Origin: Bacteroidota bacterium
Lineage (GTDB): Bacteria; Bacteroidota; Ignavibacteria; Ignavibacteriales; SURF-24
Assembly (NCBI GenBank): GCA_030706145.1
Contig: JAUZPB010000001.1
Coordinates: forward strand, 1-64,000
DNA length: 64,000 bases
Direction of reading: 5' to 3'
Positions 13,647 through 23,009 of the stretch are shown piece by piece; the stretch's first letter is position 1, and each line of letters starts with the position of its first letter. Both the position numbers and the translations under genes were made by a program. Under the pieces are notes generated by a model that had not been told where the DNA came from, searched no databases, and saw only the letters and a program-made list of their open reading frames with translations.

Positions 13647-15626
13647 TTATTTTGTGACAACCATCTTCTTAACAGAAACAAAGTCACCAGCTTTCAGTCT
13701 ATAAAAATAAACTCCATTTTTCAATTTTACTCTACTAGAGAGAGTATTAAAGGAAACAGAATATTCTCCTTTTTCCTGAACTTCATCAACTGGAATTGAA
13801 ACAGCTTCAAGTCTATCGTTATATATTCCAAGTGTTACTTTACATCTTTCAGGAAGAATGTATTTGATTGTAGTAGAATCACTAAAAGGATTCGGGAAAT
13901 TCTGGTCGAGGGCAAAGTTATCTGTATTTCTATTGCTAAAGTCATCCAGCTTCACAATATTGGATCTTTGCTGATTTCCATCTTCATCAATTTGAGAAAG
14001 TCTATAGAAGATGGTACCTTTTGCAGGTTTTACTTCAGAGAACTCATAGTTATTTGCACCTTTATTATTCTTACCAGGAATAAATTTCACTTGCTGCCAG
14101 TTTGAATCTGAGATAACTCTTTCGACATAAAATCCTTTATTACCGGACTCATTAATAGTTTCCCAGGAAGCTCTAACCGTTCCATTATCCAGAACAGCTC
14201 TAAAGCCGAGAATATCAAAATTAAACTTGCCATTGCCAAGTATTCTCTGCCCATAGATATTGCTCTGTTTAGCGCGATTCTCCTTAAAGATAGCTACTGC
14301 CCCATTGATCTTATTTGGAAGGAGAGATAAGTAACTTTTCTCTGAATTTAAGTTTGAGGCAATTTCAATTCCAGTTGAGTCCCAAAGTCTTCTGCCATCG
14401 TTTGAGATTCTCTGAGCAAATATATTTCCCTTCTGAGCTTTAACACGCATATCCAGCCAAGCGATAATAGCGCCCGAGTTCTGATCGGCGATCATTCTTT
14501 GGCTCATCTGGTTACCACGAAATCTGATTACAGCAATGCCATCTTTACTCCACTGTGGTTTACCCGATAAGTTGAATTTCTGCATAAAAATATCTTTATC
14601 GTTTGAAATTTCGTTTATCCAACTAACAATGATTCCTGAAGGAGTATAAATTTCCTGTGGACTAGTCTGGCTGCCATATTGATTAGTAAGTTTTTCCCCT
14701 TCTTTAGTCCAGAGGAACTTTCCATCGATTGAGATAAGCTGCTGGTAGATATCCTTTGTCCCATTTTTAACCTCCCAGTTTACGTAAGCTGAATTACCAG
14801 CTACACTTAGAACAGAGTAGTTAAGAATGTTCTCATGCGCCCTTGAGATCTGAACAGTTTTATTTGACCAGGTATTTTTACCATTAGCATCAATGTGCTG
14901 CACATATAATCGTGCTTTTCCCTCGACAGATTCAACCCAGAAGACAAACATACCACCTTTGTTATCTCCAGCAATCTTAGGATTAGATTTTATTCTTGCC
15001 GATTGAGCTACAAGCATTCCATTTGAAGTAAATGCAGTCTCTCCAGATGGTTTTATTTTTTGGACATAGACCTTGTAATTAGCAGGAGTACTAAAATCCC
15101 TATAAATATAAGTTACAAAGACATTACCCATATTATCTGAAGTAACATAAGGATACTGAGACTCCCCCTCATGGTCAGTAAGTTTAATACCATAGTTAGT
15201 CCATAATAGTTCTCCCTTAGATGAGACCCTCTGAGCATAGAGTTCTCCGTTCTTATCTCCCCCAAAGTCCTTATAAATAATAACAGCACTCAAAGGTGTA
15301 GAAGTTGCAGAGATTGGAGCCGTCTTGTGTGAAGAAGACTGACTTACGGGTTTTCCATATGATGGAAAATCTGTTGTACCATCAGCAGTAAAATGCTGAA
15401 AGTAAAGATTAGAAGTTGAAGAATCTACTTTATCTTCCCAGAAAACAAATCCCCCGCCATTTTGGTCTGAAACTGTAGTAATATTAATTGGATTTTTTGT
15501 ATCTGAAGCTAGCACTTTGTTTGCAAGAGGATCATTATTCCACTGAGCAAACACCCCTAAAGGAAGGGTAAACAAAGAGACAATTATAAAAAAGAAACTC
15601 AATTTAAATTTATCTAAGGTATGCAT
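13647..15626 (-). CDS. Secreted protein with Type IX secretion C-terminal domain
   Basis: I place the start at ATG 15626, preceded by GAGG at a 6-base spacing, although an earlier in-frame ATG exists at 15638. The N-terminus is a signal peptide (basic DKFK, then a long hydrophobic run ending GVFAQ). The body repeats a pattern of 'GKLLWTKEG', 'GEPxWSKDG' and 'VQxIxxxGxxxWxxxG' segments about every 45-60 residues, suggesting a beta-propeller-like array. The last 85 residues begin FALDQNFPNPFSDSTTIKY and end in a VYFYRLKAGDFVSVKKMVV strand, the Por/T9SS-type sorting domain. It is probably an exported or surface-anchored protein of unknown ligand. Its first codons overlap the smc stop. Confidence 0.88.
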   Translation of the reverse strand: MHTLDKFKLSFFFIIVSLFTLPLGVFAQWNNDPLANKVLASDTKNPINITTVSDQNGGGFVFWEDKVDSSTSNLYFQHFTADGTTDFPSYGKPVSQSSSHKTAPISATSTPLSAVIIYKDFGGDKNGELYAQRVSSKGELLWTNYGIKLTDHEGESQYPYVTSDNMGNVFVTYIYRDFSTPANYKVYVQKIKPSGETAFTSNGMLVAQSARIKSNPKIAGDNKGGMFVFWVESVEGKARLYVQHIDANGKNTWSNKTVQISRAHENILNYSVLSVAGNSAYVNWEVKNGTKDIYQQLISIDGKFLWTKEGEKLTNQYGSQTSPQEIYTPSGIIVSWINEISNDKDIFMQKFNLSGKPQWSKDGIAVIRFRGNQMSQRMIADQNSGAIIAWLDMRVKAQKGNIFAQRISNDGRRLWDSTGIEIASNLNSEKSYLSLLPNKINGAVAIFKENRAKQSNIYGQRILGNGKFNFDILGFRAVLDNGTVRASWETINESGNKGFYVERVISDSNWQQVKFIPGKNNKGANNYEFSEVKPAKGTIFYRLSQIDEDGNQQRSNIVKLDDFSNRNTDNFALDQNFPNPFSDSTTIKYILPERCKVTLGIYNDRLEAVSIPVDEVQEKGEYSVSFNTLSSRVKLKNGVYFYRLKAGDFVSVKKMVVTK

Positions 15627-18600
15627 CAAAATCCTCATTAAATCTTACACTGACAAGTTTAGAAATACCCTCTTCCTGGATGGTTACTCCATAGAGGGTT
15701 TCAGCAGCTTCCATTGTTCTTTTGTTATGAGTAACAATGATAAACTGAGTATTTTTACTGAACTCACGTATAATTTTCGTAAAACGGTCAACATTTGCAT
15801 CGTCAAGCGGTGCATCCACTTCATCTAAAATACAGAAGGGACTAGGTTTGACCAAATAAATAGCAAATAACAAAGCTGTAGCTGTTAAAGTTTTCTCACC
15901 ACCTGAAAGGAGTTCGATCGAAGTAGGCCTTTTCCCTTTTGGTTTTGCAATTATCTCGATTTTAGCTTCAAGAGGATCGACTCCCTCTTCAAGCTTTAGA
16001 TCGGCCTCATCACCAGGATTAAAGAGTGTTCTGAAGATGCTAATAAAGTTACTTCTGATCTGTTCAAAAGTCTCACTGAAAAGGTTCTGTGCAGTAAGGT
16101 TAATTTCTTCAATTGTTCTAACAAGATCCTTTTCTGATTCAACCAGATCACCTCTTTGTTTATGGAGAAATTCAAGTCTTTCTCTTTCCTGTTCATACTC
16201 GGAATAGGCAAGAAGATTAATTGGTCCCAGGTTTTTAAGCTGTTGCTTATAGGAATGGACTTCATTTGCCCTTTCCTCAAAATTAAAACTCTCCAGGTCG
16301 TCAAATTCTTTGATCTCAAGCGTTATAGCATAGTTCTCCTTAATATTAGCTATAAGATTATCAATCTTAAGATTAATTTCATTCATACGAATATCAGTCG
16401 AATGTATCTCATCTGAGACACGGTCCCGATCTTTGCGGAACTCCTGCAGTTTTTTCTCAAGTTCAAGAGCGCTTCTTCTTACAGCTTTTAAGTTATTGTC
16501 AATCTCGGTTTCAACAGCGACAATCTTTCTTCTATCGGCTTCAAGATCGTCGAGGTCAAGCTGTTTATCTTCAATATCATTAGTTAAAGAGACAATTTCT
16601 TCGGAACTAGAAGAAATATCATATTCTCTTTTCTCTATAGACTTTTTAATATTCTCCTTTGAGAGCTCTGCTCTTGAAATGCTGTTTTCAAGGTTTCTTC
16701 TTTCGCCAATTAGTCTTTCTAGTTCCAGTTTAGCCTGATTGTGTGCAGTAACAGCGCCATTAAACTCAGCTTCAGAGGCTTTGACCAGAAGTTCCAATTC
16801 TTTTAATGTTTCATCGGCCTTTTGTTTTTCAGAGATCTCAATTTCCAAGACTGCGATTTGCTGTTCAAGCTGTTTTTCAATCTGCGAAGATGAACCAGCA
16901 AGCTCATTTATTTCAGCTCTTAGCTTTTCAATTTCGTCAGATGACTTTTGCTTTTCAAAATCAAACTGTGCTATCTGCTTTTCAACATTAGCCAGATCAT
17001 TTACAAGTATCCTGTTCTGTTCTGAAAGCTCTTTAAGATCAATCTCTTCTAAGAAAGCCTCTGTGCTCTCAATTTCTTTTTTCAGTTCAAGAAGGCTTTT
17101 TTCATACTTTGGGAACTCACTCTTCAGGTTTTCGAGCAGTTGTCGTCTTCCAAAGAGAGTATCATCCAATTTAGGAGCAGATCCAGCATCAACAAGTCCA
17201 CTTTTATCTAAAAAGTCACCATTTAGAGTAGCGAAGTTAAAATCCGGATATTTACTGCAAAGCTCAAAGGCAGTATTAAGATCCTTTGCAAGTGCTGTCT
17301 TAAAGAGAATTTTCTTAAAAAATGGCTTCCATTTATCATCAGCTTGAATGAATGAATCGGCCCATCCCAGGAAATTTTCATCTTTTTCAATTTTTTTGTA
17401 CTTCTTCTTAAACTGGTAATCAACAATTTTATCCAGAAAGGTCTTCTTTTTATTCTGGTTTAATCCCAGCACATAAAATGAAGCCTTGCCCAAGTCATTT
17501 TCTCTTAAGTAGCTAATTGCTTTCTGAAGTTCTGGTAAGGATTCCACGAGAAGGTTGTTCAGTACATTTTTAAGTGCAGCTTCAAGAGCAAAGCGGTAGT
17601 CTTCCTCTGTATTGCCCACATCGGCAAGCAGGGTTTTTTCCTTTTCTGTCCAGCTATCGCTTTCAATAAGAACCTTTGCGCCCTTGGAAACGCCCTCAAA
17701 ATTATTAATAAGGCCCTGGAAAAAATCTATCTTATCCTTTAGACCATTAATAATACTTCTTTCTTCAAGCTCTTTTCCTTTTAAGGAAGTAAGTTTTTTT
17801 TCTAGCTCTTCTTTTTCATCCTGTTTTTGAAGGTAAACTTCTTCAGAATGAGCAAGTTTTTTTTCTGTCTCGTTTTTTTCCTGTTCCAGTTCTTCAAGAA
17901 ATCCAACAGTTTTAGCAAGAGTGTTCGTTATACTAAGGATTCTCTTATTAAGTTTCTCAATATTCTGGTTTGTAGTAGAAAGAGCTTTTTTAAGGTTGGA
18001 GATCTCGTTTTCTTTTGTAGTAATATCCTTAAACTTGCCGAAGATCGAGTCTCTGTGGTATTTCAATTCATTTCTTTTCTCTTCAAGAAGAGACTGCTTT
18101 TCATCAACTAAAGAAGCAGTATTTTCAATTTCTGATTCTTTAGTAGAAATAGAAGAACAAGTCCTGGAAATCTTATCTCTATTTTCAACAATTAGGTCTT
18201 CTGCATCTTCAAACTGGAAATGAAGTTCTTCTAATTCCTGCGTAAAACGAGTAATATTTCTATCAAGAGATTTTTTTCTTTCCTCTGAGACAGAAATACT
18301 ATTCTGCACGGAATGTATCTTTTCAGTTTGTAGGGATATTTCTCTTCTTTTGTCCTTAAGTTCATTTTCAATGCTAGTGATCTGTTCGCGGAAAACAGAG
18401 AGTTCATCTTCCAATTTTCTCAGTTCAGATTCAATATGAATCTTTCTTTCAAAAGCAGTTTCTTTCTGAACTTTAAGTGTAGAACGTTTTCCATTTAAGA
18501 GAGCATATTCTCTTTCAGAAAGATCGAGTTCCTGTTCCCTGAGTATGGAAGAGACCTTATTATATTTATCAGCCTTTTTAGCTTGTCTTTCCAGAGAGTT

Positions 18601-19206
18601 AACTTGTTTTTCAACCTCGGAGACAATATCATTGACACGAGTTAAATCTTTTCTTACTTCTTCAAGTTTTTTAAGTGAAAGGCGTCTGCGCAGCTTATAT
18701 TTATTAACACCCGCAGCCTCTTCGAACATATTTCTTCTTTCATCAGGTTTACTGCTAAGGATATTCTCAACCATTTTAAGCTCGATAACTGAATAGGCAT
18801 TTGTTGCCATACCAGTATCCATAAAAAGGTTAGTTATATCTTTAAGACGGCAGACATTCCTGTTAAGAAGATATTCACTTTCGCCTGATCGGAAGATTCG
18901 TCTAGTAATTGTTACTTCGGAATACTCAGTAGGAAGGACATTATTATCATTAACCAAAGTAAGAGAAACCTCAGCCATACCCATAGGTTTTTTATTCTGG
19001 GTACCGTTAAAGATAACATTCTCCATTTTATCACTTCTAAGTGTGCTGCTTTTCTGTTCGCCAAGGCTCCACCTAATAGCGTCAACGATGTTTGTTTTTC
19101 CGCAGCCGTTAGGACCAACAATTGATGTAACACCCTTGTTAAAATTAACAACGGTCTTATTAGCAAAAGACTTAAATCCGAACAACTCTAACTTAGAAAG
19201 ATACAA
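15610..19206 (-). CDS. smc: Chromosome segregation ATPase SMC
   Basis: The 1198-residue protein is a full-length bacterial SMC: Walker A GPNGCGKTN at residues 31-39, the AIRWSLGEQ Q-loop following, two long coiled coils around a hinge at about 500-680 (GVSKGAKVL at its start), then the signature LLSGGEKTLTATALLFAIY and Walker B CILDEVDAPLDDANV. SMC organises and segregates chromosomes. The start codon is TTG (19206-19204), with AAGGAG 10 bases upstream; no ATG fits the conserved N-terminus YLSKLELFGFKSFA. Its stop overlaps the T9SS cargo gene by 17 bases, an odd pairing of functions. Confidence 0.97.
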   Translation of the reverse strand: MYLSKLELFGFKSFANKTVVNFNKGVTSIVGPNGCGKTNIVDAIRWSLGEQKSSTLRSDKMENVIFNGTQNKKPMGMAEVSLTLVNDNNVLPTEYSEVTITRRIFRSGESEYLLNRNVCRLKDITNLFMDTGMATNAYSVIELKMVENILSSKPDERRNMFEEAAGVNKYKLRRRLSLKKLEEVRKDLTRVNDIVSEVEKQVNSLERQAKKADKYNKVSSILREQELDLSEREYALLNGKRSTLKVQKETAFERKIHIESELRKLEDELSVFREQITSIENELKDKRREISLQTEKIHSVQNSISVSEERKKSLDRNITRFTQELEELHFQFEDAEDLIVENRDKISRTCSSISTKESEIENTASLVDEKQSLLEEKRNELKYHRDSIFGKFKDITTKENEISNLKKALSTTNQNIEKLNKRILSITNTLAKTVGFLEELEQEKNETEKKLAHSEEVYLQKQDEKEELEKKLTSLKGKELEERSIINGLKDKIDFFQGLINNFEGVSKGAKVLIESDSWTEKEKTLLADVGNTEEDYRFALEAALKNVLNNLLVESLPELQKAISYLRENDLGKASFYVLGLNQNKKKTFLDKIVDYQFKKKYKKIEKDENFLGWADSFIQADDKWKPFFKKILFKTALAKDLNTAFELCSKYPDFNFATLNGDFLDKSGLVDAGSAPKLDDTLFGRRQLLENLKSEFPKYEKSLLELKKEIESTEAFLEEIDLKELSEQNRILVNDLANVEKQIAQFDFEKQKSSDEIEKLRAEINELAGSSSQIEKQLEQQIAVLEIEISEKQKADETLKELELLVKASEAEFNGAVTAHNQAKLELERLIGERRNLENSISRAELSKENIKKSIEKREYDISSSSEEIVSLTNDIEDKQLDLDDLEADRRKIVAVETEIDNNLKAVRRSALELEKKLQEFRKDRDRVSDEIHSTDIRMNEINLKIDNLIANIKENYAITLEIKEFDDLESFNFEERANEVHSYKQQLKNLGPINLLAYSEYEQERERLEFLHKQRGDLVESEKDLVRTIEEINLTAQNLFSETFEQIRSNFISIFRTLFNPGDEADLKLEEGVDPLEAKIEIIAKPKGKRPTSIELLSGGEKTLTATALLFAIYLVKPSPFCILDEVDAPLDDANVDRFTKIIREFSKNTQFIIVTHNKRTMEAAETLYGVTIQEEGISKLVSVRFNEDFDAYLR

Positions 19207-19309: not shown

Positions 19310-21892
19310 TTACATAAGTTTATACTGGTTAATTGCATTTATTAAATAATAAACTGTTGACTCACTAAGCTGAAAATAAATAAGAATACCTCCGAATACA
19401 ACAAGAATTACAGCAATGCTGTAGAAATAAACCGGTGCCGGGTTGACATCAAAAATAACATATATACCCTTCATCAGGCGGTAGAAAATCCATATGCTAA
19501 AGAAGACCAAAGCAATAAATAAATATAATGTAAGTACATTAGCACTAAGGACCTTATAGAGCACTAAACCAAAAGGAAGCAGCAGTACCAATGGAAGGAA
19601 CGACCAGACAACAGTAAAATAAATACTTGTAAAGAAGACTTTATTTCTAATAAAAAATGAAGCAATCTTGACTACTATTGATGCAACAATAAAAAACAGG
19701 AGCGAAAGAAAAGTAGTCCATATCAAAGCCTGAGTTGGGTTCCAGGCAAGGTAAGAGACAAACTTAAGCCAAGCTGGATTACCAAAGGCCAGAACAATCT
19801 TCTCAAGGAGCACATTTGTTCTGAAGAAGTAAAGAAGATTAACCTGTAAAAGGGCTGAACATAGAGAAAGGACAAGCATAAGCGCAGTAGTATGAGCGCC
19901 TGACATAACTCTTAAGTCTCTAATATCAGCATAAAAATTATAAGGTCTTAGAAGAGCACGGGTAGCATCCTCTCTAAATTTTTTCCTTGAATTAACAAGG
20001 GCACCCATCAGCAGAGCCAATGCCAGACCAAATATAACAAATACAACAGGTGAATCATCTTTTTTACTACCAATTGGAATTGTGACATCCTCTCCATCGT
20101 TTAATTTCGACTGGATAACCTTCTGACTTAATCTATCCATCTGACGGTTTTCACCAAGTATTCCAATACTATAGAGATTAAAAGAACTATAGCCAGCGCT
20201 TAAAGAACTAAAGTCACCCCTAAAGTCAAAAGCCGAGTTAATGAAAAATCCAGGAGTCTGGTTTTTGTGTGTATAATCTATCAGATCAGAGAAAAACTTT
20301 GCCTGAGCTTCAAAGGAGAAAGGATTTGAATAACCGTTTGTACTGCCAAGGAAAGTAGCATAAGTAGCTTCGCTAATAAATACATGTCCTTTACCAAGAG
20401 AATTAGAGAGCTCCTCATACTTTTTGGTGTATTCATCCATTGGTTTATTAAAAAGTTCAACCCCATAGAGGTCGAGTCCCTCGATTGCTGGTATTTTAAA
20501 GCCAACAAAAGAAGCGTATGTAATTTTTCTAATAAGGTGTTTGGAAAGGTCAGCTAAGTTACTAATAAGGGAAATATGGTCAGCTGAATTTGGCAAATAA
20601 GAACTTCCGAGTCCAATTCCAGCAATAGCTGAATATTCCTTATAATTGTTTAAGAATTGTCCTAAATAACTTTTTATTCTATCTTTAAAAGAAATTTTTG
20701 CAGTAATCTGAGATGGAACAGAATTGATAGGCAATTCGATAAATGCCAGAAGTCCATACTGCTCGCATAGTCTAAGCAGATAAGGGTGTGGGGCATCCTT
20801 AGCAAATCTTATTGCATTAAACCCCATTGCTTTGATCAGTTTAATATCCTCTCTCATTTTTTCGAAAGAGGCCATGTTACCATAACCGTCATTTGAACAA
20901 TAATATGTTGTGCCATTTAGTATGAAAGGAGAAATAGAATTAAATGAAAGTGCATCGTTCAATGGTTCAAGTGAATAAAAAGAAATGGGTTTAATTACCT
21001 CATCTACTAGCTGCTCGCCTCTAAAGAGCTGGATCCTCATTGAATAAGAATAAGGAGTCTGTGGTGACCATAGCACAGGAGAAGAGAGGTCATAGGATTG
21101 GCTTAAAATCTTCTCTTTATGCAAAGGCAGGTCAAAACCATTTGCAGAGTTAAGAAATTCTTCGCCCTGAGGAGAAATAATTCTTGTTCTCAATGTAAAA
21201 GTGTTATTCTTTGAAGAATCTACCTGTCTTTCATCTTTTGGATGGTTATTAACCTTTGCGCTAACAAAAAGATTAAAGTGGCTTCCGCCTACAGCCCTAT
21301 AGGTAAAATCCAGATTTGAAATAGATGTAAGAGGCAAAATCTGAATATAAACATCCCTAAAAATTCCAGCATTATTTTGGGGAAATAAGAACCTCTGATT
21401 CATTGGTATAGTTGCATCGGACTGCAGACTATGAAAGATCTTTACAGCCAATATATTTCTTTTATTTGGTTTAAGAAGATCCTTTGGCAAGTCGACGTGG
21501 AAGGGAAAATTGCCACCTGGATGTTTATAAATAACAAGGTTGTTAACAATTATTTCAGCAGAATAACTTAAACCTAAAAACAGCAGTTGAAAGGTATTAT
21601 TATTTATCTGCTGAGACGAAAGTTTAATTTCTTTTTCAAAAGTCAGTTCATCCTGGCCTGTAAAGTTGCACGGAACGCCTACAGTCCTCATTTCATCCCG
21701 GGCATCTTTTTTATATACATTCCAGCCCCCATCTAAACTAAGAATGCTTCTGGTGTGTGTAACACCCAGGAAAATTGAATCCTGAGCAACAAGGTCATAA
21801 TGCGGGAGTGAATTTACTCTAATTTGACCTTCGGTTTGGCTCAAAGCAGCCATGCAAATCAATACAAAAAATACAATACTTCTATTTCTCAT
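19310..21892 (-). CDS. GH2-like protein fused to a polytopic membrane domain
   Basis: An upstream in-frame start exists at 21958, but ATG 21892 begins a clean signal peptide (MRNRSIVFFVLICMAALSQT), so I use it. Residues about 30-200 form a GH2 sugar-binding-like domain (ILSLDGGWNVYKKD; AGIFRDVYI), then an Ig-like domain, then a TIM barrel starting near FNSISPFILNG and FNAIRFAKDAPHPYLLRLCE. The nucleophile position is kept (VFISEATYA, Glu508). The acid/base position, normally Asn-Glu, reads GLGSSY, with Ser431 where Glu is expected; the 77-residue spacing matches LacZ. After about residue 610 come six or so transmembrane helices resembling Yip1-type domains. It is likely an envelope protein with a periplasmic GH2-like part. 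Activity is doubtful. Confidence 0.82.
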   Translation of the reverse strand: MRNRSIVFFVLICMAALSQTEGQIRVNSLPHYDLVAQDSIFLGVTHTRSILSLDGGWNVYKKDARDEMRTVGVPCNFTGQDELTFEKEIKLSSQQINNNTFQLLFLGLSYSAEIIVNNLVIYKHPGGNFPFHVDLPKDLLKPNKRNILAVKIFHSLQSDATIPMNQRFLFPQNNAGIFRDVYIQILPLTSISNLDFTYRAVGGSHFNLFVSAKVNNHPKDERQVDSSKNNTFTLRTRIISPQGEEFLNSANGFDLPLHKEKILSQSYDLSSPVLWSPQTPYSYSMRIQLFRGEQLVDEVIKPISFYSLEPLNDALSFNSISPFILNGTTYYCSNDGYGNMASFEKMREDIKLIKAMGFNAIRFAKDAPHPYLLRLCEQYGLLAFIELPINSVPSQITAKISFKDRIKSYLGQFLNNYKEYSAIAGIGLGSSYLPNSADHISLISNLADLSKHLIRKITYASFVGFKIPAIEGLDLYGVELFNKPMDEYTKKYEELSNSLGKGHVFISEATYATFLGSTNGYSNPFSFEAQAKFFSDLIDYTHKNQTPGFFINSAFDFRGDFSSLSAGYSSFNLYSIGILGENRQMDRLSQKVIQSKLNDGEDVTIPIGSKKDDSPVVFVIFGLALALLMGALVNSRKKFREDATRALLRPYNFYADIRDLRVMSGAHTTALMLVLSLCSALLQVNLLYFFRTNVLLEKIVLAFGNPAWLKFVSYLAWNPTQALIWTTFLSLLFFIVASIVVKIASFFIRNKVFFTSIYFTVVWSFLPLVLLLPFGLVLYKVLSANVLTLYLFIALVFFSIWIFYRLMKGIYVIFDVNPAPVYFYSIAVILVVFGGILIYFQLSESTVYYLINAINQYKLM

Positions 21893-22253: not shown

Positions 22254-23009
22254 TTAAGCTGCTTTAATAATACTAAAGAATGATTCAGCCTTCAGGCAAG
22301 CGCCGCCAACTAAAGCACCATCGACATCAGGTTGAGAAAGCAGTAAAGAAGCATTCTCTGGTTTTACACTGCCACCATACTGAATAATAATTTCATCAGC
22401 AGCTTCTTTGGAATAAAGTTTTTCGACCAAAGTTCTAATAAACTTATGTACTTCCTGAGCTTGATCTGGTGAAGCAGTTTTACCTGTTCCAATAGCCCAT
22501 ACAGGTTCATAAGCAATTATGATCTTCTTAAGGTCCTCAGCGCTAACGCCACTTAAGCCTTCAGTTACCTGAGTTTTGATAACAGATTCTGTAGTACCGG
22601 ACTCTCTTTGCTGAAGAGTTTCACCGACGCAAAAAATTGGTTTAAGAGCACTTGAAAGGGCTTTCTTTATCTTTTTATTAATGAGCTGATCGTTTTCTAA
22701 AAAGATAGTCCTTCTTTCAGAGTGTCCAAGTATGACAAATTCACAGCCAGCGCTTTTCAACATTGATGCAGAAATTTCGCCGGTGTAGGCACCGTTTTCT
22801 TCAAAATACATATTCTGAGCGCCAAGTTTTATTACAGAACCCTCAATAAGTGTTTTTGCAGTATCCAAAGAAGTAAAAGGAGGACAAATAATAACATCTG
22901 CTTTTATTTCCTGGCCTGATAAAGATTTCTTCAATTCCGAAATAAGGTTCACACTAGCCGGAATATCATTATACATTTTCCAATTACCGGCAATAACTTT
23001 TTTCCGCAT
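22254..23009 (-). CDS. tpiA: Triose-phosphate isomerase (TpiA)
   Basis: TpiA interconverts dihydroxyacetone phosphate and glyceraldehyde 3-phosphate. The 251-residue protein begins MRKKVIAGNWKMY with the catalytic Lys in GNWKM, has the catalytic His in FVILGHSERR and the catalytic Glu in IIAYEPVWAIGTGKTAS, with phosphate-binding loops IIQYGGSVKPEN and VDGALVGGACL. It is a complete normal-length enzyme. It is downstream of nfu and mrp on the same strand with a 120-base gap, so it probably has its own promoter. Confidence 0.97.
   Translation of the reverse strand: MRKKVIAGNWKMYNDIPASVNLISELKKSLSGQEIKADVIICPPFTSLDTAKTLIEGSVIKLGAQNMYFEENGAYTGEISASMLKSAGCEFVILGHSERRTIFLENDQLINKKIKKALSSALKPIFCVGETLQQRESGTTESVIKTQVTEGLSGVSAEDLKKIIIAYEPVWAIGTGKTASPDQAQEVHKFIRTLVEKLYSKEAADEIIIQYGGSVKPENASLLLSQPDVDGALVGGACLKAESFFSIIKAA

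What the first reader, a model, noticed from the sequence alone, without database searches (positions are those of the whole stretch)
19310..21892. GH2-like enzyme fused to a multi-helix membrane domain, acid/base Glu lost
A signal peptide, GH2 domains and a barrel with the nucleophile retained (Glu508) are followed by about six transmembrane helices. The acid/base position is Ser431 in GLGSSY instead of Asn-Glu. The 77-residue spacing to the nucleophile matches LacZ, so the alignment is credible. This suggests a sugar-binding sensor or altered catalysis anchored to the inner membrane, not a normal glycosidase.
Basis: partly seen in the sequence, partly recalled or inferred. Interest (0 to 1): 0.6.

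Follow-up and report, generated by a model that had tools for sequence, protein, structure and literature searches.

The report
Membrane-anchored dead glycosidase beside smc
This bacterial protein is a sugar-cutting enzyme fold that has lost its cutting machinery and is fused to a Yip1-like membrane module; nearly every genome sampled from its bacterial class keeps one copy, usually right before the chromosome-organising gene smc, so it probably works as a cell-envelope receptor or scaffold rather than as an enzyme.

Summary
The minus-strand gene 19310-21892 encodes 860 aa: signal peptide, three-domain GH2 ectodomain (closest PDB folds: Bacteroides/Tannerella GH2 beta-glucuronidases and beta-galactosidases) and a six-helix membrane region (AlphaFold2 pLDDT 92, pTM 0.90). 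Ser431 occupies the acid/base site and Glu508 the nucleophile site. (1) The gene belongs to a family found in 71 of 73 sampled genomes of its class and 14 of 223 from other classes of the phylum. (2) No aligned member (0 of 108 rows) has both catalytic Glu, and 55 of 87 non-redundant rows lack even the nucleophile, so this is an ancient pseudoglycosidase under strong purifying selection. (3) The membrane part is Yip1-like, with a near-invariant cytosolic motif RPYNFYADIRDxR; this is the most conserved stretch. (4) The gene lies directly upstream of smc, same strand, in 55 of 80 genomes checked; 24 of the 25 exceptions are in six families, mostly one Kapabacteria-type clade. One genome keeps only the Yip1 module, still beside smc. 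Best reading: a periplasmic pseudo-GH2 receptor or scaffold coupled through a Yip1 module to a cytosolic partner. Ligand and partner are unknown. I found no published description.

The parts
19310..21892 (-). Whole gene: signal peptide, pseudo-GH2 ectodomain, six-helix Yip1-like membrane domain (860 aa)
   Evidence: relatives
21824..21892 (-). Signal peptide (aa 1-23)
   Evidence: hydrophobic helix 2-20 in the model; relatives begin the same way
21329..21760 (-). GH2 sugar-binding-like jelly roll (aa 45-188)
   Evidence: PF02837, strands in the model
20981..21328 (-). GH2 immunoglobulin-like domain (aa 189-304)
   Evidence: PF00703, model
20093..20980 (-). GH2-type TIM barrel (aa 305-600), catalytically degenerate
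   Evidence: PF02836, Foldseek
20600..20602 (-). Codon of Ser431 at the acid/base position
   Evidence: alignment with the genome's own LacZ-type enzyme; family column G48/S19/E4 of 87
20369..20371 (-). Codon of Glu508 at the nucleophile position
   Evidence: family column E32/S21/N7/G6 of 87
19988..20047 (-). TM1 (aa 616-635), anchors the ectodomain
   Evidence: model helix, mean hydropathy 2.41
19901..19987 (-). Cytosolic linker (aa 636-664) with near-invariant F-x-E...R649-P-Y-N-F-Y-A-D-I-R-D-x-R661
   Evidence: mean pairwise identity 68% against 22-30% elsewhere; strongly positive
19361..19900 (-). Five-helix Yip1-like module (aa 665-844)
   Evidence: PF04893 matches 46 of 51 relatives at E<=1; model pLDDT 92.4
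15610..19206 (-). smc, directly downstream on the same strand, 103 bp gap
   Evidence: SMC_N and hinge; adjacency in 55 of 80 genomes
22254..23009 (-). tpiA, directly upstream; order conserved in many relatives

Best explanation
It is a core-genome membrane pseudoglycosidase. The protein is exported, and its GH2-type ectodomain stands in the periplasm, where the degenerate barrel cleft no longer performs retaining hydrolysis but serves as a binding surface for a glycan, glycan precursor or envelope protein. TM1 and a five-helix Yip1-like module hold it in the inner membrane and place the near-invariant RPYNFYADIRDxR segment at the cytosolic face, where it docks a conserved cytosolic partner. 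The protein thus acts as a receptor or scaffold linking envelope state to something inside. Likely co-transcription with smc in most lineages points to growth, division or chromosome/envelope coordination. Shown computationally: architecture, loss of catalytic residues, selection, distribution, smc adjacency. Inferred: topology (positive-inside rule and signal peptide), ligand binding, partner docking, role.
For: Fold. Catalytic pair never present together in 108 aligned rows. LacZ active-site equivalents Y503, H540 and H391 are not retained as conserved residues, while structural residues D474, G520, Q530 and D556 are. Purifying selection on both halves, dN/dS about 0.02-0.06 in pairs where it can be computed. 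Present in 71 of 73 sampled genomes of the class, single copy; one of the two without it (G014) also returns no smc match, probably an assembly gap. The cytosolic linker is the most conserved segment and strongly positive. Yip1 model PF04893 is collinear over 3-172 of 173 positions in relatives, above cut-off in L049 and L130. smc adjacency 55/80. One natural variant (G184/L130) retains only the Yip1 module, still beside smc.
Against: No ligand, partner or phenotype is known. The smc link is gene order only and is lost in six families (24 genomes); flanking genes (tpiA, lpxB, HAD phosphatase) suggest a mixed housekeeping operon. The window protein alone scores below the Pfam Yip1 cut-off (18.7 vs 28.6 bits). 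Glu508 is kept in 18 of 23 rows of the window's own clade, so residual chemistry there is not excluded.
Confidence: 0.55

Rival explanations
1. Altered catalysis: the window's clade is still an enzyme that uses Glu508 as nucleophile and lacks a protein acid/base, as plant myrosinases (GH1) do, acting on substrates with good leaving groups or transferring glycosyl groups.
For: Glu508 is kept in 18 of 23 rows of the Ignavibacteriales clade; barrel and Arg362 (LacZ R388 equivalent) are intact. Myrosinase precedent is from general knowledge.
Against: Clade members replace Glu508 by Q, D, S or G (L004, L010, L014, L144). The LacZ Y503, H391, H540 and W568 equivalents are Leu480, Lys365, Tyr511 and Asn552 in the window protein. 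Orthologues elsewhere do without the nucleophile.
Confidence: 0.12
2. Alternative acid/base: another Glu near the end of strand 4 (e.g. the E433/E434 seen in Kapabacteria-type GLSDGLEEG sequences) has taken over, so part of the family is still a retaining glycosidase.
For: E at column 434 in 46 of 72 rows; a few of these also keep the nucleophile, e.g. L071, L033.
Against: The window protein has no acidic residue from 429 to 437 (GSSYLPNSA). Most E434 rows lack the nucleophile.
Confidence: 0.05
3. The Yip1 module is a channel, transporter or membrane-shaping unit and the pseudo-GH2 domain is its heavy-chain-like chaperone or stabiliser, as 4F2hc/rBAT (inactive GH13-like) is for SLC7 transporters.
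For: Both halves kept together in nearly all members; the Yip1 module survives alone in G184. A review of YIPF proteins suggests a transporter, channel or receptor role (PMC6682643). The 4F2hc comparison is from general knowledge.
Against: No transport-site signature identified; no solved fold resembles the module (no hit at E<1).
Confidence: 0.2
4. Vestigial passenger: the gene is retained only because it is co-transcribed with smc.
For: Long-lasting adjacency to smc.
Against: Strong purifying selection, near-invariant motif, and retention in 24 genomes of six families where the smc linkage is lost.
Confidence: 0.04

Closest known systems
GH2 beta-glucuronidases/beta-galactosidases of Bacteroides/Tannerella type (PDB 3fn9, 6ed1, 8dhe, 5uj6, 3cmg)
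   Same: Same three N-terminal domains and barrel; about 18% identity over about 600 residues
   Different: Acid/base Glu lost, nucleophile variable, fused to a six-helix membrane domain
Yip1/YIPF family (PF04893)
   Same: Five helices after a cytosolic N-terminal segment with a conserved proline; Pfam model matches most relatives (PMC6682643)
   Different: Has its own near-invariant RPYNFYADIRDxR motif, an extra TM1 and a periplasmic ectodomain; the window copy is below the curated cut-off
Klotho / beta-Klotho (inactive GH1-like ectodomains, FGF co-receptors)
   Same: Works alike: a membrane-bound glycosidase fold missing catalytic Glu that acts as a receptor (PMC10628560)
   Different: GH1 not GH2, single TM, animals; no homology claimed
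RsgI anti-sigma factors with glycosidase-type sensor domains (Clostridium thermocellum)
   Same: Bacterial membrane protein with an extracytoplasmic carbohydrate-sensing or glycosidase domain (PMC12203970)
   Different: Single TM with an anti-sigma domain; different fold families

Membership tests
Glycoside hydrolase family 2 (as an active retaining glycosidase) | Jelly roll + Ig-like + TIM barrel architecture | tested here: met
   Pfam PF02837/PF00703/PF02836 above cut-off; Foldseek 3fn9 E 2.5e-37
Glycoside hydrolase family 2 (as an active retaining glycosidase) | General acid/base Glu after Asn at the end of strand 4 | tested here: not met
   Ser431; family column G48/S19/E4 of 87
Glycoside hydrolase family 2 (as an active retaining glycosidase) | Nucleophile Glu at the end of strand 7 | tested here: met
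   Glu508 in the window protein, but in only 32 of 87 relatives
Glycoside hydrolase family 2 (as an active retaining glycosidase) | Both catalytic Glu present together | tested here: not met
   0 of 108 aligned rows
Glycoside hydrolase family 2 (as an active retaining glycosidase) | Measured glycosidase activity | not testable with these tools
   needs biochemistry
Yip1 domain (PF04893) | Score above the curated cut-off of 28.6 bits | tested here: inconclusive
   window 18.7 bits, E 0.0016; relatives L049 38.1 and L130 33.3 bits pass
Yip1 domain (PF04893) | Five TM helices, cytosolic N-side, conserved proline before the first helix | tested here: met
   TM2-TM6 by model and hydropathy; positive cytosolic linker with P650; feature list from PMC6682643
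Yip1 domain (PF04893) | Profile-profile similarity to stand-alone Yip1 proteins of related genomes | tested here: inconclusive
   A2 vs A3/A4 null, but the two stand-alone Yip1 groups also fail against each other
Yip1 domain (PF04893) | Same fold as a solved Yip1 structure | not testable with these tools
   Foldseek against PDB gave no match at E<1

The most novel reading that the evidence does not exclude
A previously undescribed core envelope protein of the Chlorobi/Ignavibacteria/Kapabacteria branch that links a periplasmic pseudoglycosidase receptor to SMC-based chromosome organisation: the Yip1 module's invariant cytosolic motif recruits or regulates SMC (or a divisome/Lpx partner) according to envelope glycan state.
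Probability: 0.1. Interest if true: 0.85.

Novelty: new variant of a known kind. Interest (0 to 1): 0.6.

Why it matters
[quoted passage not shown] Here one is fused to an ectodomain of known ancestry, is near-universal and single-copy in a bacterial class, has a sharply defined invariant motif, and sits beside smc. That makes the question testable by deletion, pull-down with the cytosolic motif and ligand screening of the ectodomain. It also warns that automatic annotation as 'glycoside hydrolase family 2 / beta-galactosidase' is wrong for this core gene, which would inflate predicted carbohydrate-degrading capacity of these lineages.

Tried and rejected
Decaying pseudogene: rejected, dN/dS about 0.02-0.06 and presence in 71/73 genomes of the class. 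Alignment shift hiding a normal acid/base Glu: rejected for the window protein by alignment with the genome's own LacZ-type enzyme and the absence of acidic residues from 429 to 437. Profile-profile test against local Yip1 proteins: uninformative because its positive control also failed. Foldseek of the membrane module against PDB: no match. Anti-phage defence models: none. SMC acting without kleisin so that this protein replaces it: rejected, ScpA and ScpB are present in all 16 genomes tested. Promoter/terminator scan: promoter-like sites fewer than chance, no terminator-like site between the gene and smc; uninformative. Literature for a Yip1-glycosidase fusion: none found; signature-protein paper PMC9318685 does not mention it.

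Full report
OBSERVATION. The gene is on the minus strand, ATG at 21892, stop at 19310, 860 aa. Pfam places GH2 domains at 83-184, 221-301 and 322-394, all above cut-off. NCBIfam gives only sub-threshold matches to named GH2 enzymes, best LacZ4 beta-glucuronidase at 93.9 bits against a cut-off of 950. The AlphaFold2 model, built on 52 family sequences, has pLDDT 92.0 and pTM 0.90. Foldseek against the PDB returns GH2 beta-glucuronidases and beta-galactosidases with E about 1e-37 and TM-score on target 0.56-0.82. The genome's own normal LacZ-type gene (contig C179, 336 bits to PF02836) aligns SLGNEAG with GLGSSYL and LILCEYEHAM with VFISEATYAT, so Ser431 is at the acid/base site and Glu508 at the nucleophile site.

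THE FAMILY. The search for related loci over one genome per species gave 71 relatives, almost all labelled Ignavibacteria, Kapabacteria or related Bacteroidota/Chlorobiota. A scan of 296 genomes of the phylum with the membrane-domain profile found 85 positives: 71 of 73 in the class and 14 of 223 outside it, the latter in four families. Copy number is one (G077 shows two pieces of one broken gene). Of the two class genomes without it, G014 also returned no smc match, so its absence is probably an assembly gap; G225 has smc but no such gene. One unnamed positive outside the class (G043) is a single contig of 3,293,456 bases, which I recall as the size of Chloroherpeton thalassium; this identification is from memory.

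CATALYTIC RESIDUES. Over 108 aligned rows (some from the same genome in two collections), 6 have Glu at the acid/base column, 38 at the nucleophile column and none at both. In 87 non-redundant rows the acid/base column is G48, S19, E4 and the nucleophile column E32, S21, N7, G6. The LacZ Y503, H540 and H391 positions are not conserved and W568 is W in only 25, whereas the structural Asp474, Gly520, Gln530 and Asp556 are nearly invariant. On the tree the nucleophile state changed at least 9 times by well-supported branches, which fits a residue under no catalytic constraint. Synonymous change far exceeds replacement in close pairs (dN/dS about 0.02-0.06 where not saturated) for both the GH2 and the membrane half. 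This is a maintained pseudoenzyme. In the window's own clade Glu508 is kept in 18 of 23 rows, so a myrosinase-like residual chemistry remains a minor rival.

MEMBRANE DOMAIN. The model gives TM1 616-635, a charged linker 636-664 and helices at 665-692, 719-748, 766-783, 788-814 and 818-844. The linker carries 8 Lys/Arg in the window and 7.1 on average in the family, against 0.1-1.4 in the predicted periplasmic loops, so signal peptide and positive-inside rule agree on a periplasmic GH2 part and a cytosolic linker. Mean pairwise identity is 68% in the linker and 22-30% elsewhere. Positions R645, R649, D656, R658, D659, R661, W763 and R805 are near-invariant in 87 rows. PF04893 (Yip1) matches 46 of 51 relatives at E<=1, best 1.3e-9; the profile match starts at the linker and covers positions 3-172 of 173; L049 and L130 exceed the cut-off, the window copy does not. 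Profile-profile comparison with local stand-alone Yip1 proteins failed, but so did its positive control. No solved structure resembles the module. I call it Yip1-like, not a proven member. The YIPF review states that no function was reported for prokaryotic members and suggests transporter, channel or receptor roles (PMC6682643).

GENOME CONTEXT. In the window the order is tpiA, this gene, smc, on one strand, with HAD phosphatase, phospholipid methyltransferase-like and lpxB genes further on. smc follows directly in the 16 Ignavibacteriales-type loci (L017 included) in which an smc match was found. Of 80 phylum-scan genomes fetched and checked, 55 have smc immediately downstream on the same strand. 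Of the 25 others, 24 lie in six families (f6, f7, f9, f11, f17, f18), mostly one Kapabacteria-type clade, and one in f4. The arrangement spans several classes of the phylum and is therefore probably ancestral. In the Kapabacteria-type loci the neighbours are instead SprA and HrcA-GrpE-DnaJ, or MocA-like/PurC/RodA genes. In G184 (L130/L161) the GH2 part is gone and a 294-aa Yip1-only ORF sits upstream of smc: the membrane module, not the glycosidase fold, is the part that stays. ScpA and ScpB are present as usual, so this is not a kleisin substitute.

MECHANISM. I think it most likely that the degenerate GH2 ectodomain binds an envelope ligand and that the Yip1-like module relays or anchors this to a cytosolic partner through the RPYNFYADIRDxR linker. 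Shown: architecture, catalytic loss, selection, distribution, gene order. Inferred: topology, ligand, partner, signalling. Precedents for 'dead glycosidase as receptor' are Klotho/beta-Klotho (PMC10628560) and, for glycosidase-type sensor domains in bacteria, RsgI factors (PMC12203970); neither is homologous. A coupling to SMC itself is possible but rests on gene order only.

VERDICT. Observation confirmed; interpretation partly supported and extended. New variant of a known kind: a pseudoglycosidase-Yip1 fusion conserved as a core gene. I found no published description in the library searched, which does not hold most subscription papers.

Noticed in passing
L130/L161 (G184), ORF at L130:4321-5202: Natural domain loss: a Yip1-only 294-aa ORF without any GH2 part lies directly upstream of smc.
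   Followed up: partly
L131/L241 (G077): The family gene is broken into several frames in a single-contig genome; real pseudogenisation or assembly error not distinguished.
   Followed up: no
L066: MAG labelled Bradyrhizobiaceae carries a copy nested among Kapabacteria-type sequences; probably a mislabelled or mixed bin.
   Followed up: no
L068, L069: MAGs labelled Chloroherpeton thalassium hold copies that group with Kapabacteria-type sequences and far from G043/G114; labels probably wrong.
   Followed up: no
window 13647-15638: Protein ending in a Por-secretion-type C-terminal tail (PF18962, below cut-off) lying between smc and the HAD phosphatase; present at this place in only 3 of the named relatives.
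   Followed up: no
L060, L029 membrane domains: Weak similarity of the membrane module to DUF4271 (PF14093, E about 0.002-0.003), perhaps a further relative of the fold.
   Followed up: no
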